Source of the DNA: Microbulbifer sp. HZ11
Lineage (GTDB): Bacteria > Pseudomonadota > Gammaproteobacteria > Pseudomonadales > Cellvibrionaceae
DNA: 64,000 bases
Assembly (NCBI RefSeq): GCF_000708675.1
Contig: NZ_JELR01000001.1
Coordinates: 744,001 to 808,000, forward strand
Direction of reading: 5' to 3'
Positions 7,966-31,504 of this stretch are shown here, in pieces. The translations under genes and the position numbers were made by a program. The notes beneath the pieces were generated by a model. The model was not told where the DNA came from. It ran no database searches and saw only the letters and a list, made by a program, of their open reading frames with translations. How positions within the stretch are numbered: position 1 is the stretch's first letter; the number at the start of each line of letters is the position of its first letter.

Positions 7966-8001
7966 GATACCTCAGGTATTGCGGACTTGATCCGAGGTAT
8001 C
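7966..8001. promoter_or_regulatory. Inverted repeat between ycaO and the small exported protein
   Basis: GATACCTC (7966-7973) and GAGGTATC (7994-8001) are perfect 8-base arms with a 20-base spacer, in the divergent intergenic region. It could be an operator or a structured 5' leader. Nothing else in the sequence decides between these. Confidence 0.35.
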
Positions 8002-10009: not shown

Positions 10010-10212
10010 AGCGGGAACTCGGATAGGGAAAATAGCCGCGTATTGTAGTTAAGGAGCGCGCGGTTTCCTATCCATATATCTTGAGCGAACAACCCGCAGT
10101 ACACCTTTTCATGGCAGTCACCAGGCTTCTCTTGAGGTACGGGGTGTGATTTCATTCTGTAAGCAAGGCAGTAGCGCAGTAATCCGCGCTGGAACACTAG
10201 GAACTGTACAGT

Positions 10213-12111: not shown

Positions 12112-12657
12112 GTGAAAATTGGAATTTACTTCGACTCCACGTCTGGCAATACCGAAGTCGCAGCCAAGCAGATACATGACTTCTTCGGGGATGATCTCGC
12201 TGAACTGAACACGATTTCAGATGCGGGTTTTCCCGACCTGGAAATTTATGATCTCGTGATCTTTGGCATACCAACCTGGGACTACGGGCACTTACAATCG
12301 GACTGGGAAGAACTCTGGCCCGAGCTCGAAGAGACCGATCTTTCAAATGCGACAATCGCGCTGTTCGGCCTGGGGGACCAGTATGGATACCCTGAGTGGT
12401 ACCTTGATGCCATGGGAATATTGCACGATCTATGTGTGGGAAAAGGAGCAGAGATCATTGGCCACTGGCCGAATCAGGGCTACGAATTTGAAAGCTCAAA
12501 AGCACTGACGGACGACGGGAAACATTTTGTCGGTCTCGCACTTGATGAAGACTGCCAACCGGAAAAGACAGAGCAACGTATTACAGACTGGTGTACTTCA
12601 CTACTGCAACAGATGAGTAGTAAGTGCGATGCTGCTGCGGAGGTCTCTGCCGTATGA
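12112..12657 (+). CDS. Long-chain flavodoxin
   Basis: 181-residue flavodoxin with a GTG start. The phosphate-binding loop FDSTSGNTEVAA sits near residues 6-17. The isoalloxazine loops are PTWDYGHLQSDW (around 56-67) and GLGDQYGYPEWYLDAMG (around 88-104), and the insertion typical of long-chain flavodoxins is present. It carries single electrons from an NAD(P)H reductase encoded elsewhere. As first gene of the operon it is a plausible donor to the di-iron oxygenase or other oxidoreductases encoded downstream (inference). Its 3' end overlaps the ligase gene by ATGA, so the two are translationally coupled. The start is the least certain part: the Shine-Dalgarno region is poor. Confidence 0.88.
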   Translation: MKIGIYFDSTSGNTEVAAKQIHDFFGDDLAELNTISDAGFPDLEIYDLVIFGIPTWDYGHLQSDWEELWPELEETDLSNATIALFGLGDQYGYPEWYLDAMGILHDLCVGKGAEIIGHWPNQGYEFESSKALTDDGKHFVGLALDEDCQPEKTEQRITDWCTSLLQQMSSKCDAAAEVSAV

Positions 12658-14210
12658 TCAGCAACCCATGTTACCGCGAAAACCTCTCCGAGCTACTCCT
12701 TCGAAGCAGCGATAGATCTTCCACAGAGGTACTGTACCTGTACAAAGAAAGCCGAATAAAGCGGACACAATTTTCAGCTTCGGTCAGAGCACTTGCCAGC
12801 GAACTCGAGAGCGTGATCAATCCCGGTGACCACATACTGATCATGCTGAACGACTCGCCATCACTGGCGCAGATGTTCTTGGCAATCATCGCGGTAGGTG
12901 GCGTTCCAGCGATCATCAACCCAAAGATTCGCTGTGAAACCATCGAAGCTATGATTTCGCAGAAGACCCCCGCGTTCATTGTGACCTCCTTTGAAAAAGC
13001 GCATACGCTCCCCCATTGGTCTGATATCGAGATCATTCTTCTTGAAGAAGACTTGCAGGCTGATAATGGCCTCTCTCCTGAGCAGTATGGATTCGCGAAA
13101 GGTAATCCAGAATGGGATGATTTCTATGAGACATCCAGCGAAGCGCTCTGCTATCTGCAATATACATCCGGATCTACGGGCACACCGAAAGGGGTAATGC
13201 ATTCCGCTGCAGGTACTTTGGCTTTCTGCGAGGCCGTCGCTGGGAAGCTGCTCAGCCTGAACAACCAACATGTGTGCTACTCAGCACCCAAAATGTTCTT
13301 TGGTTATGGCATGGGTAACTCGCTTTTTTTCCCGCTATACGCAGGCTGCACCGCTATTCTTGATGATGCCTGGCCCACACCCAAAGGAATTATCGACAAC
13401 ATCACCCGATACATGCCCTCTGTGCTGTTTGCCGTACCGGCCATTTACAATGCATTGCAAGGCCATGCGAGCCTGATAGCAAGATCAATCGAGCACGCGG
13501 TATCTGCCGGTGCCCCTCTTCCCGAAACCGAATACCGATACTGGTTGAAACAGGGCGTTGAAGTGTGTGACGGCATTGGCGCGACGGAAGTGGGACATAT
13601 TTTTCTTGCCAATCGCCCGGGAAACACCCGTGCCGGAGCTACTGGCCGGGTGCTGCCGGGGTACGAGTGCATGCTCGTAGACGATAACGGCGACGAGATA
13701 TCTGCGCCCGACACACAAGGGGTACTGCTGGTCAGAGGAGATAGTGTAAGTTCCGGCTATTACGGCCAACACGAAAAAACGTCTGAGAAATTCAATCAGG
13801 GGTGGTACCGGACGGGCGACAACTTTGTAATGGACGCCGACGGCTACTACTACTATCGAGGTCGCGAAGACGACATGTTCAAGGTAAATGGGCGCTGGGT
13901 GACTCCGGCTCTTATTGAACAGAGTCTGCTCGTGCAATTCCCCTCGTTGCTTGAGTGTGCTCTTGTTCCATCAAGTGGTGGCGCAACCCCCTCACAACCC
14001 ATCCTGTTTCTGGTGGCGGATCAGAAGATTGTCACCGCACGGTCTGTGCTGGAATTTGTTCAGAATCGTTTCGACTCCTACATGCATCCCGTGGAAATTC
14101 TGTACCTCGATTCCCTTCCCAGAAATGACAACGGGAAAGTGGTTCGCAAAGAAATGACGATGATTGCAAGCCAGCACACCGAATCTGTGGAGACATCTGA
14201 ATGCGCGTAA
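12654..14210 (+). CDS. Adenylate-forming acid:CoA/ACP ligase (benzoate-CoA ligase-like)
   Basis: 518-residue ANL superfamily enzyme starting at the ATG that overlaps the flavodoxin stop (ATGA at 12654). It shows the A3 P-loop YLQYTSGSTGTPKGVMHS, A5-like GIGATEVGHIFLANRPG, A7 YRTGDNF, A8 YYYYRGREDDMFKVNGRWV and the catalytic Lys region LPRNDNGKVVRKE near the C-terminus. The GIGATEV.HIF pattern and overall length resemble benzoate/4-hydroxybenzoate-CoA ligases more than long-chain acyl-CoA synthetases. It probably activates an aryl or short acid as starter for the neighbouring ACP/KAS machinery. The substrate is an inference and not readable from motifs alone. Confidence 0.85.
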   Translation: MISNPCYRENLSELLLRSSDRSSTEVLYLYKESRIKRTQFSASVRALASELESVINPGDHILIMLNDSPSLAQMFLAIIAVGGVPAIINPKIRCETIEAMISQKTPAFIVTSFEKAHTLPHWSDIEIILLEEDLQADNGLSPEQYGFAKGNPEWDDFYETSSEALCYLQYTSGSTGTPKGVMHSAAGTLAFCEAVAGKLLSLNNQHVCYSAPKMFFGYGMGNSLFFPLYAGCTAILDDAWPTPKGIIDNITRYMPSVLFAVPAIYNALQGHASLIARSIEHAVSAGAPLPETEYRYWLKQGVEVCDGIGATEVGHIFLANRPGNTRAGATGRVLPGYECMLVDDNGDEISAPDTQGVLLVRGDSVSSGYYGQHEKTSEKFNQGWYRTGDNFVMDADGYYYYRGREDDMFKVNGRWVTPALIEQSLLVQFPSLLECALVPSSGGATPSQPILFLVADQKIVTARSVLEFVQNRFDSYMHPVEILYLDSLPRNDNGKVVRKEMTMIASQHTESVETSECA

Positions 14211-15049
14211 TTGACGTTGATTGCCACCTTCCGGAACCCGCATTTAATAGCGTCGACCCAGGTGATAGTGATACCTACCCGATCCGTTACGCCCGGTTTG
14301 AAACCGGCAGTATCGGCGTGGACTATCTGCAACAAATGGCCGCCCGGATTCTACGCAGGCATCAGGTTAAAGCGGATGATATCGATCTGATTGTCTCTCT
14401 GTCGCTCGCGCCAGACCACTTGATCGGTGATACCAGTGTAATGGGGCCAAAAATCGGACACCCATTCCAAAGTGTGATCGGTGCGAACAAGGCTTTCGTT
14501 TTCGACCTGATGGAATCAAGCCTCGCCAAAGCACTTTCAATCATCAACACCCTGGCGATCGCCGAGTCCTACAGCAATATTTTAGTGATCCGATATGACA
14601 ATAATCAGTCGTTTGATCCCGATCCCGAGAGTGGTTTTATAAGCTCCGACGGCGCTGCGATTGCCTTGCTGGAAGCGGATCGGCAACAAATTGCTGCGAC
14701 ATATCCCCTCAATCTAGACATTGAGCCGCTAAGCATCAATCTGAATACAAAAATCAAATCGGCAAATGACAAGAAAGGTCAGTTCAGCTTTGCTTATCAC
14801 CCCAACCTTCAAAACACGGTCGAAAGCACCATCACCTCTACGCACAACCGGAATAGCGACCTGTACGACGACTACGTGATTGAATCCTGGATAGGTGGCG
14901 ATTTATTAAACGCGGGGCCCTTCACATTCTTTCAATGGATGAAGAGCAATCTCGAAACAAATAGTGGAGCGACCGGCCTCTACTCGTATGACCCATTCGC
15001 ATCAGCGATTGATTTCGTAACGTTGACCGTGAGCCAGGCTAAATCATGA
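14201..15049 (+). CDS. KASIII-like protein lacking the catalytic Cys
   Basis: 282-residue thiolase-fold protein, short for KASIII (about 320). The region that normally reads FDLNAACSGF is FDLMESSLAKAL (residues 101-112), placing Ser107 where the nucleophilic Cys belongs. The His and Asn motifs of FabH are not evident in the shortened C-terminus. KADDIDLIVSLSLAPDHLIG matches the preceding FabH-type helix-strand. It is therefore probably a non-condensing partner or scaffold, perhaps a heterodimer with the next KASIII gene, which it overlaps by four bases (ATGA). It overlaps the ligase end by 10 bases. The role is inferred. A decayed enzyme is possible but less likely in such a compact operon. 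Confidence 0.65.
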   Translation: MRVIDVDCHLPEPAFNSVDPGDSDTYPIRYARFETGSIGVDYLQQMAARILRRHQVKADDIDLIVSLSLAPDHLIGDTSVMGPKIGHPFQSVIGANKAFVFDLMESSLAKALSIINTLAIAESYSNILVIRYDNNQSFDPDPESGFISSDGAAIALLEADRQQIAATYPLNLDIEPLSINLNTKIKSANDKKGQFSFAYHPNLQNTVESTITSTHNRNSDLYDDYVIESWIGGDLLNAGPFTFFQWMKSNLETNSGATGLYSYDPFASAIDFVTLTVSQAKS

Positions 15050-16089
15050 AAAAGGCGAAAATAGCATCGATCGCGAGCCAGCTGCCCGCACGTCGATATA
15101 AAAATACTGATCCGGTCTTCAGCGAACTTCCTGAGATGTCAAAACTGTGGTGGCGTTTTTGGGGCATTGAAGAGCGCGGCTATTTCAGTCCCGAGCTCGG
15201 TGAGAATGAACTGACCGTTTCACTCTCCGTTCTCAGTCGCCTGCTGAAAGCCAACAATCTGAAAGCTGAGGATATTGATCTTATCATTTGCGCAGCATCT
15301 TGCCCTGTGTTGACAGATATCGGCAGCGTGAAAGCGGTCAATGCTCCGCGCCTGTATCCGAGATTGAGCCGGGTATTGCGTGAAGAAGCAGGCCTGACGA
15401 ATGCCATGCACTTTGATATCCAGATGGAATGCGCAAGCTTTTTACTGGGTCAGAAGCTTGCAGCCTCGTTCATCGAGCAAGGGAAAGTCAGAAACGCAAT
15501 CGTTCTTTGCTGTGAGTACATCTCCAACATGATGGACTACACCGACCGAAGTTCCACAATATTTTCCGACGGATGCGCAGCGACACTACTCACCGTCAGT
15601 GACGATGAAGGCGAGCTGCTCGCTAGCGCACAACACAGCGATGCTACACATTACACGATCGCCACAGGGAAATGGCGCCTCCCATCAAATGGGTGCCAGA
15701 CAGCGCCCACAAAGCTTTACTTCACCCTGGACGAAGATGGCCAGAAGCAGATGCAGGAATTTGTTCCGCAAAATGTACCCATCGCAATTCACCGTGCCCT
15801 GGAAAAAGCGGATCTGAAAAGTGACAAGATCAGCGAATTCGTGTTTCACCAGCCATCTCCCCTCCTCGTGCACGCCTGGGCATCCGGCGTCGACTGCCCT
15901 GAAGAGAAATATCTCACAACCATGGATAAGGCGGGCGTCATGGTGTCCGCTTCTATCCCCTATACCCTGCATCAATCCCTGAAGCAGGCACGTATCCAGA
16001 AAGGTGACACTATCGTAATGGCTGGCGCGGCGACGGGATGGGGGTTTGCGGCACAGGTGTGGCGTGTCGGCGATATCGTTATCTGCTGA
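15046..16089 (+). CDS. Divergent KASIII (3-oxoacyl-ACP synthase III-like)
   Basis: 347-residue thiolase-fold enzyme. The nucleophile is retained (FDIQMECASFL, Cys129) and the His motif reads FVFHQPSPLLVHAW. The usual Asn motif GNxSSASIP is GVMVSASIP, so the third catalytic residue is Val. FabH-like enzymes with an altered triad often do acyl transfer or non-decarboxylative chemistry rather than standard condensation (family knowledge), so the reaction here is open. It is translationally coupled to the Ser-containing homologue upstream, which suggests a heterodimer. A 55-base gap then leads to the ACP gene. Confidence 0.75.
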   Translation: MKKAKIASIASQLPARRYKNTDPVFSELPEMSKLWWRFWGIEERGYFSPELGENELTVSLSVLSRLLKANNLKAEDIDLIICAASCPVLTDIGSVKAVNAPRLYPRLSRVLREEAGLTNAMHFDIQMECASFLLGQKLAASFIEQGKVRNAIVLCCEYISNMMDYTDRSSTIFSDGCAATLLTVSDDEGELLASAQHSDATHYTIATGKWRLPSNGCQTAPTKLYFTLDEDGQKQMQEFVPQNVPIAIHRALEKADLKSDKISEFVFHQPSPLLVHAWASGVDCPEEKYLTTMDKAGVMVSASIPYTLHQSLKQARIQKGDTIVMAGAATGWGFAAQVWRVGDIVIC

Positions 16090-16144
16090 ACATATTTAAT
16101 TTAACCGGGGGAGTCCCCCAAATTTTCTCTAAACAGGTGACATT

Positions 16145-16399
16145 ATGGACAATCTTATCGAGACGATCAGAAGCCTCGCAATCGAAGCCGGCGAGCTGGA
16201 AGACACGGAAATCGGTCTTCAGGACAACCTGGAAGACGTAGGCCTGGATTCTCTGGCCGGGCTGGAGATCACGGTAGGCTTGGAGAAAAAGTATAAAGTA
16301 AAGGTTCCACCGTCCCGCTATGAAGAAATGGTGACCATTCAGGCCATTGCCGATCTGATCAATGAACTGGTCGACGCGAAAGAAGCAGCGACCGCCTGA
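16145..16399 (+). CDS. Dedicated acyl carrier protein
   Basis: 84-residue ACP. The phosphopantetheine attachment motif is VGLDSLAGLE with Ser36. Helix I is acidic (IETIRSLAIEAGELEDTE) and the remainder is the usual four-helix length. An ACP of its own, distinct from the housekeeping acpP, shows that the operon assembles its acyl chain on a private carrier. It is preceded by AAACAGGTGAC and followed after 14 bases by the CrtI-like gene. Confidence 0.92.
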   Translation: MDNLIETIRSLAIEAGELEDTEIGLQDNLEDVGLDSLAGLEITVGLEKKYKVKVPPSRYEEMVTIQAIADLINELVDAKEAATA

Positions 16400-16413
16400 T
16401 CGAGATTTGTTCA

Positions 16414-17910
16414 ATGAAGGAACGAGCGAAAATTTTCGCTGACGAACTGGTCGTTGGTGCAGGTCTTACCGGGCTGGTCTACGGGAATGTAGCCGCCGCT
16501 TCCGGGAAACGTGTGGTTGTCATAGACAAACACACAAAAGTTGGTGGCTATGCCACCAACTTTTCCCGTAAAGGCGAATATATATTCGATTGCAGTCTTC
16601 ACAAGATTACCGGGTTCGGCAAAAACGGAAACCTCGAAGATGCGTTGACCCGTACGGGACTCATTGACCTTGTGGACTTTGAGACCTACGAACACTTGAC
16701 GAACATCTTTATCGGAAAGCGAAACCTTCGTCTGTCTGCACACCCTGAGCAATTCATAGCTCAGTTACTGCAGGCGTTCCCCGATGAGGCTGAGTCAATA
16801 CAGCGTTTCGTCTCAGATATAAAAGGCTGCGGCTATCAGAACTACATGATCGCACGATTGGCTCTGGGCGAGCACGAACTCAGTCTGGATGAAATCGTGC
16901 GTGGGCGGAAACTAAGTCGAATCACTACATACGACTATCTCTGCGAGCTATTCAACAACCGGGAACTGATTACGCTATTTTGTGCAATTGCAATCAATCT
17001 TGGTGTAGAAGCCTATGAAGTCGATGCGCTGTACTTCCTCCATTTTGCTTACACGTTCTTCTTTACAGAGAAACGTTTTGTCAAAGGATCGTCACAGGCG
17101 CTATCTGACACCCTGGCCGGTGAGTTTACACGTCGCGGCGGTCAATTGATCGTCCGAGAGGAGGTAAACCGCTTGAAGGTGAAAGAAGGCACCGTCACCG
17201 GCTGCCTGACCAGACGGTACGACATAACCGCAGGACACACCGTGTTCACCGGTTGCCCCAATCAGATTATCGATCTCAGCCCTTCAACGACAGAGTTAGA
17301 TCGTTTCGCTGAAAAGTTGGAATCTCTGGAGTTCGGGCTGGGTGCCTTTATCGTCTATCTCGGACTGGACAGACCGCCGAAGGATATCGGGATAACAGAA
17401 GACGACTATCTGTTCGCTTCGACGCAGTACCTGGACTGCGCAGAAGGACTCGCCGCATCCGACGAGCGGTATCAGCACTGGCCGCTTTCGGTATCAAACT
17501 ACTCGGTACTCGATTCCTCCTACGGAAACGTCATCCAACTCGAAGTACTGGATCATCAGTCTGACTGGTTCGAACTGGATCGTCAGACATACAAGAAACG
17601 GAAAATTGCGATTGCACAACTATTGATCGATCGTTTTGCGTCACATTTTCCGGATATCAAAAAGCACATTCGGTATTTCGACGTATCGACGCCGAAGACC
17701 AGTAAAAAGTTCACCAACTCGTACGGTGGGTCCTCTTTCGGGTACAAACCAACGCCGAAAAGAAACGTGCGATTTCTACAGAAACCACCATTTCAGGGGC
17801 TTCAGTTTGTCGGAACCTGGATAAACGGAGCCGGTTACGAACCCGCCATGTGCCTCGGGTTTACCGCCGCCACCATCCGCAATCGACAACCGATCCCAGA
17901 AGGAGCATAA
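16414..17910 (+). CDS. Phytoene desaturase/CrtISO-like FAD oxidoreductase
   Basis: 498-residue flavoprotein with an N-terminal dinucleotide motif VVGAGLTGLVYGNVAAASGK and VVIDKHTKVGGYATNF (residues 13-52, the CrtI-type GG motif), a central hydrophobic substrate region, and the C-terminal FAD closing motif GLQFVGTWINGAGYEPAMCLG. The family desaturates or isomerises long polyene chains, or saturates retinol-like alkenes. In this setting the substrate is probably the ACP- or SCP2-bound acyl chain. No phytoene synthase or other carotenoid gene is in the window, so carotenoid synthesis is not indicated. Four bases separate it from the di-iron oxygenase gene. Confidence 0.8.
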   Translation: MKERAKIFADELVVGAGLTGLVYGNVAAASGKRVVVIDKHTKVGGYATNFSRKGEYIFDCSLHKITGFGKNGNLEDALTRTGLIDLVDFETYEHLTNIFIGKRNLRLSAHPEQFIAQLLQAFPDEAESIQRFVSDIKGCGYQNYMIARLALGEHELSLDEIVRGRKLSRITTYDYLCELFNNRELITLFCAIAINLGVEAYEVDALYFLHFAYTFFFTEKRFVKGSSQALSDTLAGEFTRRGGQLIVREEVNRLKVKEGTVTGCLTRRYDITAGHTVFTGCPNQIIDLSPSTTELDRFAEKLESLEFGLGAFIVYLGLDRPPKDIGITEDDYLFASTQYLDCAEGLAASDERYQHWPLSVSNYSVLDSSYGNVIQLEVLDHQSDWFELDRQTYKKRKIAIAQLLIDRFASHFPDIKKHIRYFDVSTPKTSKKFTNSYGGSSFGYKPTPKRNVRFLQKPPFQGLQFVGTWINGAGYEPAMCLGFTAATIRNRQPIPEGA

Positions 17911-17914
17911 GACC

Positions 17915-18889
17915 ATGTCGCAGCAGGCTGTCGTACACCAAGCCAACATTGACCGTATCAACAAAGTCACTGAGCGTCTCATTCTATCGTCTGAAAAAAA
18001 ATCAATGAGCACTCTCCACGATCATCCTTGGGACATGGAGATTGTCGAACCTCCTTTTCTAAAAAAGCGTGAGCGTATTTCCATTTACGGCACAGAGTTC
18101 TGGGATAAAGCGACACCTGAAGAAATTCAGAAACTCTCCCAGGAGGAAATGATTACCTGGTGGTCAGCATTCGTGCATCTCGAATCTCTGGTCGTTGAGT
18201 ACTACATGAAAGAGCTCAACAACGGTGCCTTCGATGATCTTCCATTGGTAAGAGACTACATGAAGCACTTCATCAAGGAAGAGCTCGTACACACGCTGGT
18301 ATTCAAGAAAGCCATCCGTTACTACGGCAGCGACATCTATCCAATGCCTGATTTTCTCAGGACTTTCTACGATGACAATGCCGGTACCGGGCAATACCCT
18401 TTGATGGCCGTATTTCTGACCATGGTCATCGAATGGATAGCAGATGAATATCAACGTCTTGATGTCGATGCGGACTACGTACATCCGATGGCGAAAGCGG
18501 TGGTGCAAGCCCACTGGAAAGAAGAGATGCGGCATATCAAGTGGGGGCAACAGATGATTCAGAACCTCATTGACAGTGACCCCACATTCAAACACCAAGC
18601 TCAGGAGTTGACCGCAGTATATCTTCGCCAGCTGGTGGACCAGGGCATCACAAATATCGATTGCTTCGAAAAGATCGGCTTCCAGGACCCCGCTTTCAAA
18701 GACCACGAACATCTGCTTGATGTCATTCTCTACTCCGACCACAGGCAGAAACTCAATGATCAGCTTGTGATGCCAAGCATTCACTACTTCGTAAAATCTG
18801 GTATTTACCACCCTGACTACCACGACATCTGGGTAATGCAGGGGTTCGAGCGCGTAATTAATAATGCATTAGCGAGAGGCCAGCAGTAA
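17915..18889 (+). CDS. AurF-like di-iron oxygenase
   Basis: 324 residues, ferritin-like fold. All seven iron ligands of AurF (p-aminobenzoate N-oxygenase) can be placed with matching spacing: Glu90 (FVHLESLVVEYY), Glu123/His126 (KEELVHTLVF), Glu173 (VIEWIADEY), and His200-x3-Glu204-x2-His207 (AHWKEEMRHIKW). AurF and CmlI oxidise aryl-amines to nitro groups, and other relatives hydroxylate. The reaction here is not determined by motifs, but a functional di-iron site is well supported. A strong AAGGAG precedes the start. The stop shares its final base with the next ATG. The flavodoxin at the head of the operon could supply electrons. Confidence 0.82.
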   Translation: MSQQAVVHQANIDRINKVTERLILSSEKKSMSTLHDHPWDMEIVEPPFLKKRERISIYGTEFWDKATPEEIQKLSQEEMITWWSAFVHLESLVVEYYMKELNNGAFDDLPLVRDYMKHFIKEELVHTLVFKKAIRYYGSDIYPMPDFLRTFYDDNAGTGQYPLMAVFLTMVIEWIADEYQRLDVDADYVHPMAKAVVQAHWKEEMRHIKWGQQMIQNLIDSDPTFKHQAQELTAVYLRQLVDQGITNIDCFEKIGFQDPAFKDHEHLLDVILYSDHRQKLNDQLVMPSIHYFVKSGIYHPDYHDIWVMQGFERVINNALARGQQ

Positions 18890-19218
18890 TGACACAGCGC
18901 ATAAGTTCTATCGATGAAGTGATTCAATCCATGGACGCCCGCTTTCAGCCTGCGGCCAGTAAAGGCGTAGATGCAAAGTATCAGTGGATCATCAATGGAG
19001 AGAACGGCAAAGAGTTCTGCATCCACGTTAACAATGGTGAGTTCGCCATACTCGAGGGGCGCAGGGAAAACCCAGATGTGACTTTTGAAACCGACGAGAA
19101 CTCCTATCTGCGACTGGTGAATAATGAGCTGAAGGGAATGACAGCGATATTGACGCGCAAACTTCTCGTGAAAGGCAACATTTATCTCGCCAGTAAAATG
19201 GACAATATTTTCAAATAA
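18889..19218 (+). CDS. SCP2 sterol-carrier-like lipid-binding protein
   Basis: 109-residue single-domain SCP2 protein. The pattern YQWIINGENGKEFCIHVNNG and the closing GMTAILTRKLLVKGNIYLAS (residues about 82-101) match the SCP2 hydrophobic-pocket fold. SCP2 domains bind acyl chains, acyl-CoAs or sterols non-covalently. Its place between the di-iron oxygenase and a KASIII suggests it presents a hydrophobic intermediate to the oxidative enzymes. That link is inferred from position and from its TAATG overlap with the oxygenase gene. Confidence 0.8.
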   Translation: MTQRISSIDEVIQSMDARFQPAASKGVDAKYQWIINGENGKEFCIHVNNGEFAILEGRRENPDVTFETDENSYLRLVNNELKGMTAILTRKLLVKGNIYLASKMDNIFK

Positions 19219-19238
19219 TTGAGGCAGTGGAAAATCTC

Positions 19239-20228: not shown

Positions 20229-20230
20229 CC

Positions 20231-21148: not shown

Positions 21149-21155
21149 GAGAACT

Positions 21156-21905: not shown

Positions 21906-21949
21906 CACAACCTACCCCGCGCAATCAGCTGCGCCACAAGGAGAGTACA

Positions 21950-23179: not shown

Positions 23180-23188
23180 AGGTGCCCT

Positions 23189-24208
23189 ATGACTTTTGCC
23201 ATTGAACGTTTTACCGTCAAATTCCCGGAAACGGTTTCCGCGAATACATGCTTTGATGCCGTCAGAGCAGGGGCACTTACCGGCACCTTCTCAAACTATG
23301 ACGCAGACAAAAGTATCGGGAAGAGCCGACACCTGAGTGCTGCAACCAAGCTATTCAGCTCCACTGCGTGCAAACTTCTCGAGGATTCGGAATCGGCTGA
23401 AACCCTGCAGAGAGACCCAGGTGCCATTGGTGTTTTCTTTGCCGGTGAGCACATTAATCTGGAAGACGACTTCGTTTTCGACATGTGTGCACGGAATCAC
23501 GGCCCCGATTATGTCAGCCCACTGCACGCGCCAAATACCCTTGCGAATGTGGTGGCAAGCCATTTCGCCCGTTTTGCGGGTGTCCAGGGTCCAAACTGTA
23601 CAGTTTCTTCAGGTCAATCCAGCCTTGCCCACACCCTGGATCTCGCGTTTCTGAGTATAGAGAACGAGTCAATTAATCTGGGAATTATTGGCGCGGTAGA
23701 AATTTTCTCACCCTATCATCAGTCGCTGCACTCAAAGCCCCGAGAACTCGCCTGTAGTTTCGTGGTTCGTCGATCCCGGGAAGACGATCAGGTGCTAGTC
23801 CACATTCCAACGATTTTCACCAGTCCAACACCAGACCTGAACAGCGTCGTGACAATGATCAACCAATCGATCAACACCAAGAATCTGCCTGCGGGTCTCG
23901 ATTGTCTGATCATTGCTTCTGCATCGAAATTCTACGATGACAGCAAGTCGCTTGCTGCCGCGATGTACGCCAGCAATAGCGCACAGTACGTGATAGATGG
24001 CGAAGCATGGCTCGGCCAAACTGGCGAATGCGCAAATGCCTTTGTTTTCGCGGGATGGGTTAATGAAACGTTAACCAAGGGACTTCAGGTTCCAAAGGAA
24101 GCTACTCCGTATGTACTCGGGGAACCTACTGCAGCACCGTCAACCATTGGCATCCTTGCCTGTGACGACGACGGGCAACATAGCCTTGTGATCTTTCAGA
24201 AGCGATAG
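23189..24208 (+). CDS. Chain-length-factor-like KAS (KS-beta), Gln in place of Cys
   Basis: 339 residues, a shortened KAS fold. The nucleophile region reads GPNCTVSSGQSSLAHTLDLA, aligning Gln143 with the catalytic Cys of FabF (GPxxxVSTACASG). The Cys-to-Gln change is the diagnostic substitution of KS-beta/chain-length factors. Neither HGTGT nor the second GHxxGA His motif is present, so it cannot condense alone. It probably heterodimerises with the adjacent KS-alpha and sets chain length. Similar short partners occur in aryl-polyene clusters. Assignment rests on the Gln and on gene order. Confidence 0.75.
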   Translation: MTFAIERFTVKFPETVSANTCFDAVRAGALTGTFSNYDADKSIGKSRHLSAATKLFSSTACKLLEDSESAETLQRDPGAIGVFFAGEHINLEDDFVFDMCARNHGPDYVSPLHAPNTLANVVASHFARFAGVQGPNCTVSSGQSSLAHTLDLAFLSIENESINLGIIGAVEIFSPYHQSLHSKPRELACSFVVRRSREDDQVLVHIPTIFTSPTPDLNSVVTMINQSINTKNLPAGLDCLIIASASKFYDDSKSLAAAMYASNSAQYVIDGEAWLGQTGECANAFVFAGWVNETLTKGLQVPKEATPYVLGEPTAAPSTIGILACDDDGQHSLVIFQKR

Positions 24209-24217
24209 GTAAGCCAA

Positions 24218-24700
24218 ATGTACAAAACGATCGATATACGGGAATTGATTCCCCATCGCGAACCATTCTTACTGATTGATCAAATTGTCGACTACTCCCC
24301 CGGTGTTGCGCTACACGCGCAACGTTCGGTGAGTGAGAGCGACTATTGGTTTAAGGGGCACTTCCCCGGCTTTCCGATTATGCCGGGCGTTCTGGTGACC
24401 GAAGCCCTTGCACAGTCCTGTGCGGCATTCCTTGCACTGGAAGCAAAAAGCATCACGGACACACAAAAGCTGGCAGCGGATCAGGTATACGTCCTGTTGC
24501 ACTCGGATATCAAGTTTCCAAAAGCGGTATTCCCCGGAGCACCTCTTGAACTGCGGGTCAAGATCGTAAGTGATAGCGACGCGTTTCGCGAATTCAAGGT
24601 TCAAGCTTTACAGAGCGGAAAGATCTGTGCCCGCGGAACACTAAAAGTGTCCGCCACCAGCCTGCAGGCGGTTGATCACACAAAGGCTCAGCCCGCCTAA
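24218..24700 (+). CDS. FabZ-like 3-hydroxyacyl-ACP dehydratase
   Basis: 160-residue hotdog-fold protein. IPHREPFLLIDQIVDY opens the domain. The active site is GHFPGFPIMPGVLVTEALAQ with His48 and Glu62 at the FabZ positions. It dehydrates 3-hydroxyacyl-ACP to the 2-enoyl form. No enoyl reductase is encoded in the operon, so retained double bonds (a polyene-like chain) are the simplest prediction. The operon then passes, after a 53-base gap, to export genes. Confidence 0.9.
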   Translation: MYKTIDIRELIPHREPFLLIDQIVDYSPGVALHAQRSVSESDYWFKGHFPGFPIMPGVLVTEALAQSCAAFLALEAKSITDTQKLAADQVYVLLHSDIKFPKAVFPGAPLELRVKIVSDSDAFREFKVQALQSGKICARGTLKVSATSLQAVDHTKAQPA

Positions 24701-24753
24701 AGTACCAGCAACATCAAAGCTTCGCTCCAACTCACGACCAGAAAGCGTACAAC

Positions 24754-27069
24754 ATGGACAGTTTAACCAAGAAATACCGGTATCATCTGCTTGCCCTACT
24801 GGCGATCATTGTCATTGGGCTCGCCGCAGGCATTCCTAAACTGAGTTTCAATACGGACTATCACGCTTTCTACGATAATGAGAACCCGGAACTGAGAGCG
24901 TTCGATACCATTCAGGACCGTTTTGTAAAGAGCGATACGGTGATGATCATGCTATCACCGGAAAACCATCGCGTTTTTACCGAGTCCACCATATCCGCAA
25001 TTCATAAACTCACCGAACTGTCGTGGAAAATACCCTACTCGACGCGGGTTGATTCCATTACCAATTTTCAGTTCAGTGAGGCGGAAAATGACGATCTTAC
25101 GGTACGAGACCTGGTTCCAACGGATCAACCTCTAACCCAGGATTTCCTGACAAGATCCAACCAGGATGCACTTCGTCAGGAAGAGCTTGTGGGTCGACTG
25201 TTGTCAAACGACAGCGCGCATACGGCACTTTATATCACCATCAGCTTTCCCGATGAGCGCACACCGGGACAGCCGAAAGAAGTGATGGAAGCCGTGAGAG
25301 AGATGATTAGCAGTGTTGAAGAAGAGCACCCGCAACTGGCCTTTTATGTCAGCGGTGTGGTTCCCATGGATTACGCATTCGCAGAAGTGTCCATGCGGGA
25401 TGGGGAAACCCTTATCACCGGTGCGCTACTGCTGATGTTGGTCATCCTCTATGCACTGTTTCGCTCGCTGACCGCGGTATTTGCAACAACCAGTATCATC
25501 GTCGCATCTGTTCTTATGGCACTGGGTGCAGCGGGGTGGATTGGCATACAGCTCACTCCGCCCTCCGCCTCAGCACCTTTAATGATTTTGACCATCGCTA
25601 TCGCTGATTGCATTCATTTTATTTCGTCCTATCAGCACAAGCTACAAAACACCCGGATTAAGCTGAAGGCGCTTCGCTATGCGTTCTCGCACAACTGGAT
25701 GCCGATCACGCTTACCTCCATTACTTCGGCAATTGGCTTTATCGGAATGAATTTCAGTGATTCACCACCGTTTCGGGATCTTGGCAATATCACCGCACTG
25801 GGCATCCTGTTTGCTGGCGTTCTCTCGCTGACCGTCCTGCCAACGCTACTATGGTTGCTACCGCCTGTCACACAACAAGGGATCACGCTACGCGGTACAG
25901 ACAAGCTACTGGGTGGCCTCGCACATAAAATCGTTCAGAAACCAGGGCTCATTGCCGCAGCTGGATTACTCATTGTCGCTGCGCTTGTTGCGCAAGTACC
26001 CAAGAACCGGATCGACGATACATTTCTTCATTATTTCGATCGCGAAATCCAGTTTCGTGCTGACAGTGACACCATAGAACAGAGTCTTACCGGGCTCTAT
26101 TTTATCGACTATGCCATCGATTCTGGCACGGAGAATGGGGTTTATGACCCCGCATATCTACGTAATGTTGAAGAATTCGTGACATGGTTGAATGAGCAAC
26201 CGGAAGTGACACATGTAAGTTCACTACTCAGTACCATCAAGCGCCTGAACAAAAACCTGCATGGCGATGATCCACACTATGCCCGCCTGCCAGAGACAGA
26301 GCAGGAAATCGCGCAATATATCTTTCTCTACGAGATGTCCCTGCCCTATGGGCTGGATCTGAAAAACCAGATGAGCCTGGACAAATCTTCCCTACGGGTC
26401 TCGGCAACGCTGTCAACGATACCCACTCAGCAGGTGCTTGCCTTTGAAGAGCGTGCGAAGCAATGGTGGAGCCAGCGGGGGGATATTGAGGTGCTCGCGG
26501 GCAGCCCCACATTGATGTTCGCGCACATCAGTCTACGAAATATCAAATCAATGCTCACTGGTACGGCACTCGCACTGATCGGGATCTCAATTTTGATGTT
26601 GTTGATGATGCGATCATTGAAATATGGTGCCATCAGTCTACTACCGAATCTCGCTCCGGCGCTGATGGCGTTCGGGCTTTGGGGGATAGTGGTCGGTGAG
26701 GTGGGCCTCGCGGTCTCGGTTGTTGCAGCCATGAGTCTGGGTATTGTGGTAGATGACACCATCCACTTTCTGTACCGCTGTCTGCGCTATCAGCGCGCCG
26801 GTCTTGGAATCGAGCAGGCTGTTCCCCGCACCATACGTCATGTCGGTCGCGCTATCGTCAGCACAAGTCTGATTCTGGCGGGCGGGTTCGGCATACTGGC
26901 GTTATCGCACTTCAAGGTGAATTCCGAGATGGGGCTTCTCACTGCGGTCTGTATACTGATCGCCCTCATGCTTGACCTCATAGTTCTCCCTGCTCTACTC
27001 ATCATCACCCTTCGCAGAAGGCGCGCGGCTTCTGCACTTCCGGTGGACGTACAGCCTCAATCGGCTTGA
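24754..27069 (+). CDS. MMPL/RND-family lipid exporter
   Basis: 771-residue inner-membrane transporter with two repeats of one plus five membrane segments, each repeat holding a large periplasmic loop (about residues 35-215 and 410-600). The second half carries SLGIVVDDTIHFLYR, and the first DCIHFISSYQHKL, with the conserved Asp of proton-driven RND pumps. The HAE3/MMPL subgroup moves lipids, hopanoids or polyketide lipids to the periplasm. It is followed directly by a LolA-like carrier, a pairing seen in several lipid export systems including aryl-polyene clusters. It is probably the export pump of the operon product. Confidence 0.88.
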   Translation: MDSLTKKYRYHLLALLAIIVIGLAAGIPKLSFNTDYHAFYDNENPELRAFDTIQDRFVKSDTVMIMLSPENHRVFTESTISAIHKLTELSWKIPYSTRVDSITNFQFSEAENDDLTVRDLVPTDQPLTQDFLTRSNQDALRQEELVGRLLSNDSAHTALYITISFPDERTPGQPKEVMEAVREMISSVEEEHPQLAFYVSGVVPMDYAFAEVSMRDGETLITGALLLMLVILYALFRSLTAVFATTSIIVASVLMALGAAGWIGIQLTPPSASAPLMILTIAIADCIHFISSYQHKLQNTRIKLKALRYAFSHNWMPITLTSITSAIGFIGMNFSDSPPFRDLGNITALGILFAGVLSLTVLPTLLWLLPPVTQQGITLRGTDKLLGGLAHKIVQKPGLIAAAGLLIVAALVAQVPKNRIDDTFLHYFDREIQFRADSDTIEQSLTGLYFIDYAIDSGTENGVYDPAYLRNVEEFVTWLNEQPEVTHVSSLLSTIKRLNKNLHGDDPHYARLPETEQEIAQYIFLYEMSLPYGLDLKNQMSLDKSSLRVSATLSTIPTQQVLAFEERAKQWWSQRGDIEVLAGSPTLMFAHISLRNIKSMLTGTALALIGISILMLLMMRSLKYGAISLLPNLAPALMAFGLWGIVVGEVGLAVSVVAAMSLGIVVDDTIHFLYRCLRYQRAGLGIEQAVPRTIRHVGRAIVSTSLILAGGFGILALSHFKVNSEMGLLTAVCILIALMLDLIVLPALLIITLRRRRAASALPVDVQPQSA

Positions 27070-27103
27070 AGTCAATCAATAACGGTTTACAGTGAGGTTA
27101 ACC

Positions 27104-27895
27104 ATGAAATGGAACAAGACAATCCCGCATCTCATCCTGGCGATAGTACTGTCCGGGCAGGCCTGGGCTGTGGAACAAAATAATGAAAAGGCACTCGCAA
27201 TCGTTACCGAAAGCAAGCAACGCGATGCTGGGTGGGTAGATGCATCCGCAGAAATGACCATGACCCTCTTCGACAAAAATGGTAATAGCGTCAGTCGAGA
27301 GTTGCGGACCATGATGCTCGAAGTAGCCGACGATGGTGATAAAAGCCTGACGATTTTCGACACACCACATGACGTCAAAGGCACCGTCTTTCTGAATATA
27401 TCCCGCGTTCTCGAGCCGGATCAGCAATGGATCTACATGCCCGCTCTGGGGCGTATCAAACGGATCGCCTCGCGGAACAAATCCGGACCATTTCTTGGCA
27501 GCGAGTTCGCCTACGAGGACGTCGGCTCATTTGAAATCGGAAAATACGACTATCGATACGTGGAACTGGAAGACTTTCAGGGAAAACCGAACCATGTCAT
27601 CGAATACATTCCGAAATACGAAAATTCCGGATATACCAAACTGAAAGTCTGGTTAGACACCAAGCATCTGCGCCAGAGCAAGGTCGAATATTATGATCGC
27701 AAAGATAGCCTTCTCAAGACGCTACTGCTATCAGACTACACTCTGTATGAGAATCGCTATTGGCGGGCGAATACGAAAACCATGGTCAACGTACAGAATA
27801 AGAACAAAACCATACTCGCCACCAATAAATTGTCTTTTGGTGTGGATTTCGACCCCGCGACCTTTCATCGCAGCGGTATGAAGCATCAGAAATAA
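27104..27895 (+). CDS. LolA-like outer-membrane lipoprotein-sorting protein
   Basis: 263 residues from the ATG at 27104, with AGTGAGG six bases upstream (a GTG at 27092 lies within that site). A Sec signal ends near SGQAWA-VE. The mature part is the LolA_like beta-sheet half-barrel family (PF17131 type), with WIYMPALGRIKRIASRNKSG and YTKLKVWLDTKHLRQSKVEYYD. Members shuttle lipids or lipoproteins across the periplasm for RND pumps. It probably receives cargo from the preceding MMPL pump. Confidence 0.85.
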   Translation: MKWNKTIPHLILAIVLSGQAWAVEQNNEKALAIVTESKQRDAGWVDASAEMTMTLFDKNGNSVSRELRTMMLEVADDGDKSLTIFDTPHDVKGTVFLNISRVLEPDQQWIYMPALGRIKRIASRNKSGPFLGSEFAYEDVGSFEIGKYDYRYVELEDFQGKPNHVIEYIPKYENSGYTKLKVWLDTKHLRQSKVEYYDRKDSLLKTLLLSDYTLYENRYWRANTKTMVNVQNKNKTILATNKLSFGVDFDPATFHRSGMKHQK

Positions 27896-27942
27896 AGCGC
27901 GCTTCTAATCAATCCGATGTTTCGTAGATGCCAGGACTTTCC

Positions 27943-28422
27943 ATGATCAGCCAACGCAGTACCCTTATCGCCGCCGGTGTTATCACTCTCGCAGGAGCAC
28001 TTCTTCATATTTTCATCATTATCGGAGGACCCGATTGGTATCGATTCTGGGGCGCCGGTGAAGAGATGGCCAGAATGGCAGAAAGCGGGTCTACCTACCC
28101 TGCGATCGTAACGCTGTTCATCGCGTCCGTTCTCCTGATCTGGTCTGCTTATGCTTTTGGCGCTGCCAATGTCATCCGGCGGTTGCCACTGACCCGCGTT
28201 GCTCTCTACACAATTGGAGCAATTCTGCTCGCCCGGGGTCTGCTCGGTGTCCCCCTGCTATTCGTGGGAGAATCTGCCTATTTTGCCGAATTGCAGGTCA
28301 GACCCGCCTTCCTATTCTGGTCTTCCCTGCTATGCATCGGCCTGGGAAGCCTATATACCCTCGGGGCCATTCGCCTGAATAATGGCGCAACTGAATCGAC
28401 GTCTTCCTCCTCAACCCCCTGA
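27943..28422 (+). CDS. Four-helix membrane protein, unknown function
   Basis: 159 residues from the ATG at 27943 (AGGA seven bases upstream). An ATG at 27928 in the same frame is possible. Four hydrophobic segments are clear (about residues 5-25, 53-72, 83-103 and 118-138), with a short soluble Ser/Thr tail. The pattern resembles small DUF4345-like or DoxX-sized membrane proteins, but no diagnostic motif is seen. Its place between the LolA-like and outer-membrane genes suggests an accessory to export. Confidence 0.6.
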   Translation: MISQRSTLIAAGVITLAGALLHIFIIIGGPDWYRFWGAGEEMARMAESGSTYPAIVTLFIASVLLIWSAYAFGAANVIRRLPLTRVALYTIGAILLARGLLGVPLLFVGESAYFAELQVRPAFLFWSSLLCIGLGSLYTLGAIRLNNGATESTSSSSTP

Positions 28423-28430
28423 GTACTCCC

Positions 28431-29699
28431 ATGTGTAGGATCATTTCGCATAAGACGCGTCGCACGGAGAGACATGATTCGCGTACAAAGTCGCTTCCGG
28501 CGGGCAAGCGATCTTGTGTTAATTCCCGTCTATTTGGAGCCTTCACCCTGCTTTTGCTGCAATCCCATAGTATTGGTGCAAGCACTGACGGATACCTCGC
28601 GGCGCAGACACGGTATTTCCCGCAAAATCCACTGTACGCAGAACAATCTGAGCATTCCGCTTCCATTTCTGCAGAGCTTGAGCAGTATTACGAAGTCTCA
28701 GATGCTCACCAGATACAGGTCAAAGCATTCGGGCGTCTTGATAGTGCCGACAGTCAGCGATCCCACTTTGATCTTCGGGAGGCCTATTGGCTTACCACGA
28801 TTGAAAACGGCAGTGTCTCCGTCGGTGTCCAGAAGATATTCTGGGGCGTCACCGAGTCTGTCCACCTGGTCGACATTATCAATCAGGACGATTTTGTCGA
28901 AGATATGGATGGAGAGGAAAAGCTCGGACAGCCCATGGTACAGCTGAGCTGGACAGAAAATTGGGGATCGCTACAGGGTTACCTGCTTCCCTACTTTCGT
29001 AGCAGAGAGTATCCATCAGAGTCTGCGAGGCTGCGATTTCCACTTATCGTTCACTCGGACCCGGTCTTTCAATCCAGTGCTGGCAAGCGTCATGTGGATT
29101 GGGCGCTGCGTTGGTCTAATTATTTCGATATCTGGGATATCGGTATCAGCCATTTTTCTGGAACCAGCCGCACGCCACTCCTGGTGCCCGAGTTGAGTGG
29201 CGAAGTTTGGGGGTTGCGGCCACATTATCAGCAAATCGAACAGACTGGTTTCGAAGTCCAAGCCACACTGGATGCCACGCTGTTGAAACTTGAGGCCGTA
29301 TCCGTCTATGAGACAGGGCACGGTCGCAACACGGCCTTCGTCGGTGGGTTTGAATATACTCTCTATGGCCTCGGTGGAAGCAGTGCTGATCTTGGAATAA
29401 TTACCGAGTACCAGTTCGACGATCGCGCAGGCTTGCGCCAACGATTGAGTCAGAACGATATCGCGGCCGGTCTCAGGCTTTCACTGAATGATTTCAACGG
29501 AACCGAGGTACTCGCATTACTCGCAACAGACCTCGATAACGGCAATCGATTTATATCCATCGAAACCGAACGCCGGCTGAACAGTTTCTGGCACCTTGGG
29601 ATTGAGGCAAGGGTATTCTCCTCTATCGATACCACATCCCCGGAATTCAGTTTTCATCGCGACGATTACCTGCAACTTGAAATACGGCGTTACTTCTAA
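28431..29699 (+). CDS. Predicted outer-membrane beta-barrel of the export operon
   Basis: 422 residues. The only in-frame ATG is at 28431 and gives a long basic N-region before a hydrophobic stretch (LFGAFTLLLLQSHSIGA), an unusual but workable signal. The mature part alternates polar and aromatic residues, with many short strands, and ends LQLEIRRYF (C-terminal Phe), as in BAM substrates. SVGVQKIFWGVTESVHLVDIINQDD recalls the alginate-export/DUF1302-type porin-like proteins that often accompany MMPL and LolA-like genes. It is probably the outer-membrane end of the route. Its stop overlaps that of the convergent DTW gene by four bases. Confidence 0.65.
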   Translation: MCRIISHKTRRTERHDSRTKSLPAGKRSCVNSRLFGAFTLLLLQSHSIGASTDGYLAAQTRYFPQNPLYAEQSEHSASISAELEQYYEVSDAHQIQVKAFGRLDSADSQRSHFDLREAYWLTTIENGSVSVGVQKIFWGVTESVHLVDIINQDDFVEDMDGEEKLGQPMVQLSWTENWGSLQGYLLPYFRSREYPSESARLRFPLIVHSDPVFQSSAGKRHVDWALRWSNYFDIWDIGISHFSGTSRTPLLVPELSGEVWGLRPHYQQIEQTGFEVQATLDATLLKLEAVSVYETGHGRNTAFVGGFEYTLYGLGGSSADLGIITEYQFDDRAGLRQRLSQNDIAAGLRLSLNDFNGTEVLALLATDLDNGNRFISIETERRLNSFWHLGIEARVFSSIDTTSPEFSFHRDDYLQLEIRRYF

Positions 29700-31503: not shown

Positions 31504-31504
31504 G

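What the first reader, a model, noticed from the sequence alone, without database searches (positions are those of the whole stretch)
12112..29699. Undescribed 18-gene type II lipid/polyketide operon with its own export route
Eighteen co-directional genes with gaps of at most 55 bases and several ATGA/TAATG overlaps combine a starter ligase, private ACP, three KASIII-like proteins, KS/CLF pair, ketoreductase, dehydratase, three redox proteins (flavodoxin, CrtI-like, AurF-like), SCP2, MBL hydrolase, and an MMPL-LolA-outer membrane exporter. No enoyl reductase is present, so an unsaturated acyl chain is expected. The parts are known families. The combination is not one I can name.
Basis: partly seen in the sequence, partly recalled or inferred. 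Interest (0 to 1): 0.95.

Follow-up and report, generated by a model that had tools for sequence, protein, structure and literature searches.

The report
Quinolone operon with private polyketide synthase
This bacterial genome carries a 19-gene island that joins relatives of all five enzymes by which Pseudomonas builds its quinolone signals to a private set of genes of the chain-building (polyketide) type, and it likely makes a new kind of quinolone, predicted to carry an unsaturated tail and an oxidised nitrogen.

Summary
The 18-gene operon is real, but the pathway class can be named. Its "starter ligase", three "KASIII-like" proteins and "MBL hydrolase" are relatives of PqsA, PqsB, PqsC, PqsD and PqsE, the alkylquinolone (AQ) enzymes of Pseudomonas aeruginosa: each has a Pqs protein as best PDB match, catalytic residues kept. 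Between and after them lie genes not described in the four known AQ architectures (PMC12012761): a private ACP, KR, KS, CLF and DH, a CrtI-like flavoprotein, an AurF-like diiron enzyme, SCP2, flavodoxin, and an MMPL/LolA/outer-membrane set. A FAD monooxygenase at 10213-11355 belongs to the island too. Twelve core genes recur in 8 of 8 loci compared, among them Cellvibrio, a Photobacterium plasmid and a Polyangiaceae MAG. Two of these clusters carry anthranilate synthase genes, the Pqs substrate supply. In 14 same-genus genomes the site holds no island gene. Best reading: a fifth AQ architecture in which a dedicated type II synthase feeds an unsaturated chain to PqsBC; the AurF-like enzyme likely N-oxidises. 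The quinolone core is well supported; tail, N-oxide and export are inferred. No product was measured.

The parts
10213..11355 (+). FAD-dependent aromatic-ring-hydroxylase-type monooxygenase (380 aa); candidate C-3 (PqsH-like role) or N (PqsL-like role) hydroxylase
   Evidence: NCBIfam PRK06847 1e-36, below cut-off; relatives at the cluster in 6 of 8 loci; absent from 14 sites without the island; 4-member profile closest to ring C-hydroxylases, PqsL chain 6fho/2x3n 7e-16
12112..12657 (+). Flavodoxin (181 aa); likely electron donor to the diiron enzyme
   Evidence: NCBIfam flav_long 201.7 bits, cut-off 146.75; present in 7 of 8 loci
12654..14210 (+). PqsA-like anthranilate:CoA ligase
   Evidence: Anthranilate--CoA ligase 5oe3 (PqsA, recalled) E=8e-112, next best benzoate ligase 3e-66
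14201..15049 (+). PqsB-like non-catalytic KASIII subunit (no active Cys)
   Evidence: PqsB 5dwz_B E=6e-40, next 6e-5; gap at the Cys column in 7 of 7 loci checked
15046..16089 (+). PqsC-like condensing subunit (Cys129, His268)
   Evidence: PqsC 6esz E=5e-131, next FabH 1e-29; Cys and His kept in 7 of 7 loci checked
16145..16399 (+). Private acyl carrier protein (84 aa, DSL motif)
   Evidence: PF00550; DSL in 7 of 7 loci checked
16414..17910 (+). CrtI/CrtD/CrtISO-like FAD protein (498 aa); likely acts on the polyene chain (desaturase or isomerase)
   Evidence: NCBIfam CrtD 1.5e-27, carotenoid isomerase 1e-22, both far below cut-off; in 8 of 8 loci
17915..18889 (+). AurF-family diiron enzyme (324 aa); candidate arylamine N-oxygenase
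18889..19218 (+). SCP2 lipid-binding protein (109 aa)
   Evidence: PF02036 3e-14; in 8 of 8 loci
19227..20228 (+). PqsD-like anthraniloyl-CoA/malonyl condensing enzyme (Cys116, His261, Asn291)
   Evidence: 'PQS biosynthetic enzyme' 3h76 (PqsD, recalled) E=1.6e-131, next FabH 3e-57; triad in 7 of 7 loci checked
20231..21148 (+). PqsE-like metallo-beta-lactamase-fold thioesterase
   Evidence: 2-aminobenzoylacetyl-CoA thioesterase (PqsE) 8dq0 E=2.6e-62, next other kind 1.4e-6; HxHxDH, His158, Asp177, His219 kept in 6 of 6 checked
21156..21905 (+). FabG-type ketoreductase
   Evidence: NF009466 FabG 248 bits, cut-off 222
21950..23179 (+). Ketosynthase (KS) with Cys165, His298, His335
   Evidence: best PDB match 9s5h_B 1e-108; ishigamide polyene KS 6kxd 7e-91
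23189..24208 (+). Chain-length factor (CLF): KS-like, Gln in place of Cys, no match to the C-terminal KS domain
   Evidence: PF00109 2e-8; profile best 9s5h_C; Gln (3) or Glu (2) in the Cys column in 5 checked
24218..24700 (+). FabZ-type dehydratase
   Evidence: PF07977 4e-21; NF000582 fabZ 2.6e-32, just below cut-off
24754..27069 (+). MMPL/HAE3-type RND transporter (771 aa)
   Evidence: PF03176 2.7e-38; adjacent in 4 of 8 loci
27092..27895 (+). LolA-like periplasmic carrier (267 aa)
   Evidence: PF17131 1.5e-53; adjacent in 4 of 8 loci
27928..28422 (+). Small membrane protein (164 aa), no Pfam family
   Evidence: relatives in M. elongatus and Cellvibrio
28431..29699 (+). Predicted outer-membrane beta-barrel protein (422 aa)
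   Evidence: no Pfam hit; relatives in M. elongatus and Cellvibrio (37%, 4e-75); the ORF at the same place in the Polyangiaceae cluster matches DUF1302

Best explanation
The island encodes relatives of all five PqsA-E enzymes of alkylquinolone synthesis beside an ACP-KR-KS-CLF-DH chain-building set, and it likely makes a 2-alkenyl-4-quinolone whose unsaturated tail would be supplied by that set and whose nitrogen is predicted to be oxidised by the AurF-like enzyme. Steps: PqsA-like ligase makes anthraniloyl-CoA (inferred from the PqsA match); PqsD-like enzyme adds malonate to give 2-aminobenzoylacetyl-CoA; PqsE-like thioesterase frees 2-aminobenzoylacetate (all inferred from homology with catalytic residues kept). 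In parallel KS/CLF, FabG-type KR and FabZ-type DH elongate a chain on the private ACP; with no enoyl reductase seen in the operon it would keep conjugated double bonds (inferred). PqsBC-like heterodimer condenses the acyl chain with the aminobenzoylacetate and closes the quinolone ring (inferred). The AurF-like diiron enzyme, fed by the flavodoxin, would turn the aryl amine into a hydroxylamine before ring closure, the step that PqsL does in Pseudomonas (inferred, about 0.55). The CrtI-like protein would desaturate or isomerise the tail, the FAD monooxygenase would hydroxylate the ring, and SCP2 and MMPL/LolA/barrel would carry and export the greasy product (weak inferences). My odds: quinolone core 0.9, tail built by the island 0.8, tail unsaturated 0.65, N-oxidation by the AurF-like enzyme 0.55.
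For: Best PDB matches are PqsA 8e-112, PqsB 6e-40, PqsC 5e-131, PqsD 1.6e-131 and PqsE 2.6e-62, each far ahead of the next kind of enzyme; a record annotated pqsC in P. aeruginosa matches the PqsC-like protein at 54.6% over its length (listing only). Catalytic residues are kept and PqsB lacks the Cys. Ligase, PqsB, PqsC, ACP, CrtI, AurF, SCP2, PqsD, KR, KS, CLF and DH are in 8 of 8 loci, seven with unchanged order. Distances of chain-building and Pqs proteins across the 8 loci correlate at r 0.82-0.95 in the 9 gene pairs tested. Anthranilate synthase genes lie in the Cellvibrio cluster (component I 550 bits, cut-off 471, plus component II) and next to the PqsA-like gene in the Polyangiaceae cluster. 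The CLF profile found 27 proteins (window's own and one weak FabF included); 7 of the 27 share their longest-contig length with a PqsC-family protein, and an eighth lies on the Photobacterium plasmid that has PqsC. The island is absent from 14 same-genus sites. The AurF-like model's top matches are the arylamine oxygenases CmlI and AurF.
Against: No metabolite or transcript data. The AurF-like protein is distant in sequence: its profile finds no AurF/CmlI chain at E<=1 and its fold score is tied with an RNR-like protein. The FAD monooxygenase could do the N-oxidation instead. PqsE is missing in 1 of 8 loci, flavodoxin in 1 of 8; the exporter is adjacent in only 4 of 8, and anthranilate synthase genes in only 2 of 8, not in the window. 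A host enoyl reductase could saturate the chain. The source of the best KS/CLF match, 9s5h, could not be established. The flanking gene pair is together in only 16 of the 44 same-genus genomes where both were found.
Confidence: 0.76

Rival explanations
1. The quinolone core and private tail are right, but the AurF-like and CrtI-like enzymes both work on the polyene tail (hydroxylation, epoxidation or desaturation), and the FAD monooxygenase does the nitrogen or C-3 hydroxylation as PqsL or PqsH do.
For: AurF-like and CrtI-like genes are neighbours in 8 of 8 loci, which would suit successive work on one chain. The Polyangiaceae cluster has a flavin reductase and two FAD monooxygenases, and PqsL is known to use reduced flavin (title in the reference list of PMC7248105, passages seen).
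Against: The top structural matches of the AurF-like model act on aryl amines (with a tie to an RNR-like protein), and an aryl amine is what the PqsADE part is expected to make. The monooxygenase profile is closer to ring C-hydroxylases than to PqsL.
Confidence: 0.33
2. The product is an aminoaryl polyene: anthraniloyl primes the KS/CLF chain directly, as in aryl polyenes or azoxymycin-like pathways, and PqsBCDE serve only loading and release.
For: KS+CLF+KR+DH+ACP with an aromatic ligase and an MMPL/LolA exporter resembles aryl-polyene clusters (recalled). A diiron N-oxygenase acts on amine precursors in azoxymycin synthesis (PMC6783550, passages seen).
Against: PqsB, PqsC and PqsD occur together in 8 of 8 loci, with Cys/His (PqsC) and Cys/His/Asn (PqsD) kept in the 7 checked; this is the ring-closing set, not needed for a simple primer.
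Confidence: 0.1
3. Two independent pathways share one operon: a classical alkylquinolone made from host fatty acids, and a separate polyene lipid made by KS/CLF and exported by MMPL.
For: The described AQ clusters A-D are given without a private chain synthase (PMC12012761, parts 1-2 read). The exporter is missing from the neighbourhood in 4 of 8 loci.
Against: Pqs and chain genes are interleaved, not in blocks, in 7 of 8 loci; they are inherited together (r 0.82-0.95 in 9 pairs, host relatedness contributing). The CLF family is rare and 7 of its 27 members share a contig length with PqsC.
Confidence: 0.08

Closest known systems
pqsABCDE (+pqsL, pqsH) of Pseudomonas aeruginosa; architecture type A
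   Same: All five enzymes PqsA-E have counterparts, with catalytic residues of PqsC, PqsD and PqsE kept; a FAD monooxygenase is linked.
   Different: Genes are interleaved with a private ACP/KR/KS/CLF/DH set, CrtI-like, AurF-like, SCP2, flavodoxin and an exporter; no anthranilate synthase in the cluster of the window; the linked monooxygenase is not especially close to PqsL.
hmqABCDEFG of Burkholderia and ABCDELFG of Chitinivorax (types C, D); Pseudoalteromonas type B
   Same: Same core pathway; types C/D also tailor tail unsaturation, and D carries the N-oxidation gene in the cluster (PMC12012761).
   Different: Those change unsaturation with one enzyme (HmqF) and oxidise nitrogen with FAD-dependent PqsL/HmqL; the paper describes no KS/CLF, AurF-type or CrtI-type gene in types A-D (type B has two genes of unknown function).
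Highly reducing type II PKS for polyenes (ishigamide, aryl polyenes)
   Different: FabF enzymes and 9s5h score higher for the KS. Here the chain is likely handed to PqsBC for quinolone formation rather than released as a polyene acid or amide.
AurF/CmlI/AzoC diiron arylamine N-oxygenases
   Same: Fold and the two E-X28-37-[DE]EXXH iron motifs (motif from PMC6783550, passages).
   Different: Remote in sequence (no AurF or CmlI chain at E<=1); none is reported in a quinolone pathway in the passages and listings I saw.
Aurachin quinolone pathway (Stigmatella)
   Same: Anthranilate activated and extended; quinolone N-oxidation (recalled).
   Different: Aurachin makes 2-methyl-4-hydroxyquinoline and prenylates it (PMC12012761); no prenyltransferase domain in the operon. 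The ligase scores 377.8 bits with 5oe3 and 213.7 with 4wv3, also named Anthranilate-CoA ligase (aurachin's, recalled).

Membership tests
pqs/hmq-type 2-alkyl-4-quinolone pathway | PqsA-type anthranilate ligase | tested here: met
   5oe3 8e-112 against 3e-66 for the next kind; substrate itself not assayed
pqs/hmq-type 2-alkyl-4-quinolone pathway | PqsD condensing enzyme with Cys-His-Asn | tested here: met
   (7 of 7 loci checked, of 8)
pqs/hmq-type 2-alkyl-4-quinolone pathway | PqsB/PqsC pair: one subunit with Cys/His, one without | tested here: met
   (7 of 7 loci checked, of 8)
pqs/hmq-type 2-alkyl-4-quinolone pathway | PqsE thioesterase with metal ligands | tested here: met
   missing in 1 of 8 loci (L012)
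pqs/hmq-type 2-alkyl-4-quinolone pathway | Production of a 4-quinolone | not testable with these tools
   needs LC-MS
Described AQ cluster architectures A-D (PMC12012761) | Gene order ABCDE, A-insert-BCDE, ABCDEFG or ABCDELFG | tested here: not met
   order here is A-B-C-ACP-CrtI-AurF-SCP2-D-E-KR-KS-CLF-DH
Type II polyene synthase | KS with Cys-His-His plus CLF without the Cys, ACP, KR, DH | tested here: met
   (CLF column Gln in 3 and Glu in 2 of 5 checked)
Type II polyene synthase | Product keeps conjugated double bonds | not testable with these tools
   no ER seen in the operon, but a host ER could act
AurF/CmlI arylamine N-oxygenase | Diiron motifs and fold | tested here: met
   fold score tied with an RNR-like protein
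AurF/CmlI arylamine N-oxygenase | N-oxygenation of an aryl amine | not testable with these tools
   needs enzyme assay
Aurachin pathway | Prenyltransferase on the quinolone | tested here: not met
   no prenyltransferase domain among the 18 operon proteins

The most novel reading that the evidence does not exclude
This is a fifth, self-sufficient kind of alkylquinolone cluster: PqsBC is fed by its own polyene synthase instead of by host fatty acids, a diiron AurF-type enzyme replaces PqsL as a further route to quinolone N-oxides, and the well-known pqs operon of Pseudomonas is a stripped-down descendant of such a cluster that lost its private chain genes and borrows chains from primary metabolism.
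Probability: 0.3. Interest if true: 0.9.

Novelty: new variant of a known kind. Interest (0 to 1): 0.8.

Why it matters
Alkylquinolones are signals, iron traps and antimicrobials, and a 2025 survey knew producers in only four genera and described no private chain-building system (PMC12012761, parts 1-2 read). If right, the quinolone family extends to Microbulbifer, Cellvibrio, Photobacterium and Myxococcota, with tails that fatty acid synthesis does not make and perhaps a diiron N-oxidation route. It gives a concrete list of genes and strains to test, and it makes the origin of the Pseudomonas pqs operon a testable question.

Tried and rejected
Considered and rejected: aurachin pathway (no prenyltransferase; ligase nearer PqsA); plain aryl-polyene cluster (PqsBCD complete); cispentacin route (NCBIfam Amc models matched the KS, ACP and DH only below their cut-offs); unrelated neighbours (14 sites without the island, 8 conserved loci).

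Led nowhere: the paper search for the PDB code 9s5h listed only an unrelated text. The genome survey for PqsC (E<=1e-60) found only the window's own copy in 390 order and 398 phylum genomes, with at most five KASIII candidates scored per genome shown, so these are lower bounds. No anthranilate synthase near the window: two chorismate-binding genes lie elsewhere in the genome. The two LysR neighbours scanned match only general LysR models below their cut-offs; whether NCBIfam holds a PqsR model I did not check. Promoter- and terminator-like sites: 10 and 16, fewer than in shuffles (18.5 and 18.6). The AurF-label tree test: labelled rows do not form one clade (12 changes, 35 of 500 shuffles as low), but the labels rest on contig-length matches and are incomplete. 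The CLF model (pLDDT 72) matches ketosynthases in general.

Searches behind 'not in print': in open-licence PMC papers only; antiSMASH, MIBiG and most subscription journals were not searchable.
Full report
What is there. Pfam and NCBIfam confirm the broad families. I saw no separate enoyl reductase; the one SDR gene passes a FabG cut-off, though it also matches Pfam's adh_short_C2 model, described there as enoyl-ACP reductase. The genome has 4.2 Mb in 7 contigs and the window is part of contig 1. Same-genus genome G441 has a 4,196,952-base contig, the length given for a PqsC-family protein named Microbulbifer elongatus, so the genus is inferred to be Microbulbifer. Likewise G387's 70,805-base contig is that of Cellvibrio sp. 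OA-2007.

The key identification. Searched against all PDB chains, the ligase's best match is 5oe3, anthranilate-CoA ligase (8e-112; next kind, benzoate ligase, 3e-66). The 282-aa KASIII-like protein matches PqsB (5dwz_B, 6e-40; next 6e-5). The 347-aa one matches PqsC (6esz, 5e-131; next FabH 1e-29). The 333-aa one matches 3h76, 'PQS biosynthetic enzyme' (1.6e-131; next FabH 3e-57). The MBL protein matches PqsE, also named 2-aminobenzoylacetyl-CoA thioesterase (8dq0, 2.6e-62; next other kind 1.4e-6). That 5oe3 is PqsA and 3h76 PqsD is recalled. A P. aeruginosa record annotated pqsC matches the PqsC-like protein at 54.6% identity (listing), and four of the 120 listed homologues bear the source name 'putative alkyl quinolone biosynthesis protein PqsC'. 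Residues: PqsC Cys129 and His, PqsD Cys-His-Asn kept in 7 of 7 loci checked; PqsB has a gap at the Cys column in 7 of 7; PqsE metal ligands kept in 6 of 6. The roles of these residues are recalled; the PDB list itself includes a PqsC chain with Ala at the aligned Cys (6et0).

What Pqs enzymes do. From PMC12012761 (parts 1 and 2 of 4 read): PqsA makes anthraniloyl-CoA, PqsD condenses it with malonyl-CoA, PqsE hydrolyses the CoA ester to 2-aminobenzoylacetate, PqsL optionally oxidises the amine to a hydroxylamine, and PqsBC condenses with an acyl chain to AQs or AQ N-oxides. That paper knows four genera of producers and four gene architectures, A to D; none as described there holds KS/CLF, AurF-like or CrtI-like genes, type B having two genes of unknown function.

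Relatives. A search for AurF-like homologues gave 28 proteins, the window's own included, from 5.8 billion (361 candidates scored). A scan of 84,980 species genomes gave 5 loci, with limited sensitivity. Strong AurF-like matches (E<1e-100) occur in 2 of 369 class genomes and 3 of 144 family genomes, the window's included each time; 8 and 2 further genomes gave weak matches. I compared 8 loci: the window, M. elongatus, Cellvibrio sp. OA-2007, two gammaproteobacterial MAGs, a MAG named Cupriavidus, a Polyangiaceae MAG, and Photobacterium sp. GJ3 plasmid pGJ3-1. PqsA, PqsB, PqsC, ACP, CrtI-like, AurF-like, SCP2, PqsD, KR, KS, CLF and DH are in 8 of 8. Flavodoxin is in 7 of 8 (not found in Polyangiaceae), PqsE in 7 of 8 (not found in the Cupriavidus MAG). 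The order of the 12 is unchanged in 7; in Polyangiaceae PqsB and PqsC follow later, before the exporter. MMPL and LolA are adjacent in 4 of 8 (window, M. elongatus, Cellvibrio, Polyangiaceae); in two MAGs the cluster is followed by aminopeptidase-type genes, in Photobacterium by a FAD monooxygenase and an AraC regulator, and the 5 kb seen after DH in the Cupriavidus MAG hold none. FAD monooxygenase genes are linked in 6 of 8; of the other two, one contig ends too early to tell. LysR regulator genes flank 3 of 8.

Substrate evidence. The Cellvibrio cluster has anthranilate synthase components I (550 bits, cut-off 471) and II between DH and the exporter. The Polyangiaceae cluster has a fused anthranilate synthase divergent from its PqsA-like gene. 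The window's cluster has none; the genome's two chorismate-binding genes lie elsewhere.

One unit, gained as an island. In the two carriers of the genus, DTW-domain and RhlE genes flank the cluster, 19,689 and 19,669 bases apart. Both genes were found in 44 of 48 same-genus genomes. They lie on one contig within 20 kb in 16: the 2 carriers, 10 with gaps of 96-2,180 bases, and 4 with 4.3-8.9 kb; in the other 28 they are far apart or on different contigs. None of the 14 gaps encodes any island protein by tblastn at E 1e-3, the FAD monooxygenase included. GC is 51.1% in the island against 56.4% and 54.5% at its sides. Distances of chain-building and Pqs proteins across the 8 loci correlate at 0.82-0.95 in the 9 of 45 gene pairs tested (one of them PqsA-PqsD), at most 3 of 2,000 permutations as high; relatedness of the hosts also contributes to this.

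Roots of the family. A tree of 60 PqsC-family proteins with 3 FabH places the P. aeruginosa-type PqsC (P0046) in a clade of four (100/100) inside a 32-row clade (100/98) that holds 14 of the 16 rows labelled as AurF-linked. The labels come from contig-length matches and my loci, so they are incomplete: a Zobellella contig of 4,201,419 bases that carries PqsC, unlabelled there, is also listed for a CLF. The FabH branch is long, so the root is unsure. Loss of the private genes in the Pseudomonas line is one reading; repeated gain is another. The CLF profile search (capped at 7,995 candidates) gave 27 proteins, from the window's own down to one weak FabF; 7 share a contig length with PqsC-family proteins.

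FAD monooxygenase. Its four-member profile is closest to 6-hydroxynicotinate 3-monooxygenase and similar ring C-hydroxylases (1e-28); the PqsL chain scores 7e-16 (that 6fho is PqsL is recalled). PqsH has no PDB chain that I know of (recalled). A C-3 hydroxylation as in PQS is therefore as likely as N-hydroxylation.

Verdict. The class of the pathway is well supported and the cluster is a new architecture of it. The tail, its unsaturation, the N-oxidation and the export are inferences in falling order of strength. The review PMC7731028 (12 of 32 passages seen) reports polyunsaturated side chains in P. aeruginosa quinolones as MS detections for chains of C9 and longer, so unsaturated quinolones exist, but I saw no dedicated polyene supply described.

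Noticed in passing
G433, G434, G432, G437 (L088, L090, L089, L087): The RhlE-DTW site holds 4.3-8.9 kb of other cargo in four same-genus genomes, such as a TonB receptor and a MacB/FtsX-type permease in L088 or an M20 peptidase in L087: it looks like a recurrent insertion site.
   Followed up: partly
L099 (Photobacterium sp. GJ3 plasmid pGJ3-1, 1.69 Mb): A copy of the 12-gene core with flavodoxin and PqsE lies on a very large plasmid.
   Followed up: partly
L012:16482-17648 and L013:17974-20127: Clusters in the Cupriavidus-named MAG and in Polyangiaceae are followed by a methyltransferase and an AprA-like methyltransferase protein, which suggests tailoring variants.
   Followed up: no
P0069, P0080, P0085, P0173, P0174 (Hymenobacter, Chryseobacterium): PqsC-family and CLF relatives occur in Bacteroidota, where no alkylquinolone producer is named in the papers I saw.
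   Followed up: no
window 31238-34619: A PapD-type chaperone and an outer-membrane usher lie downstream of the island, after the DTW and GNAT genes.
   Followed up: partly
window 10006-10353 (-): A 115-aa ORF overlaps the start of the FAD monooxygenase and the start of the RhlE gene; probably not a gene.
   Followed up: no
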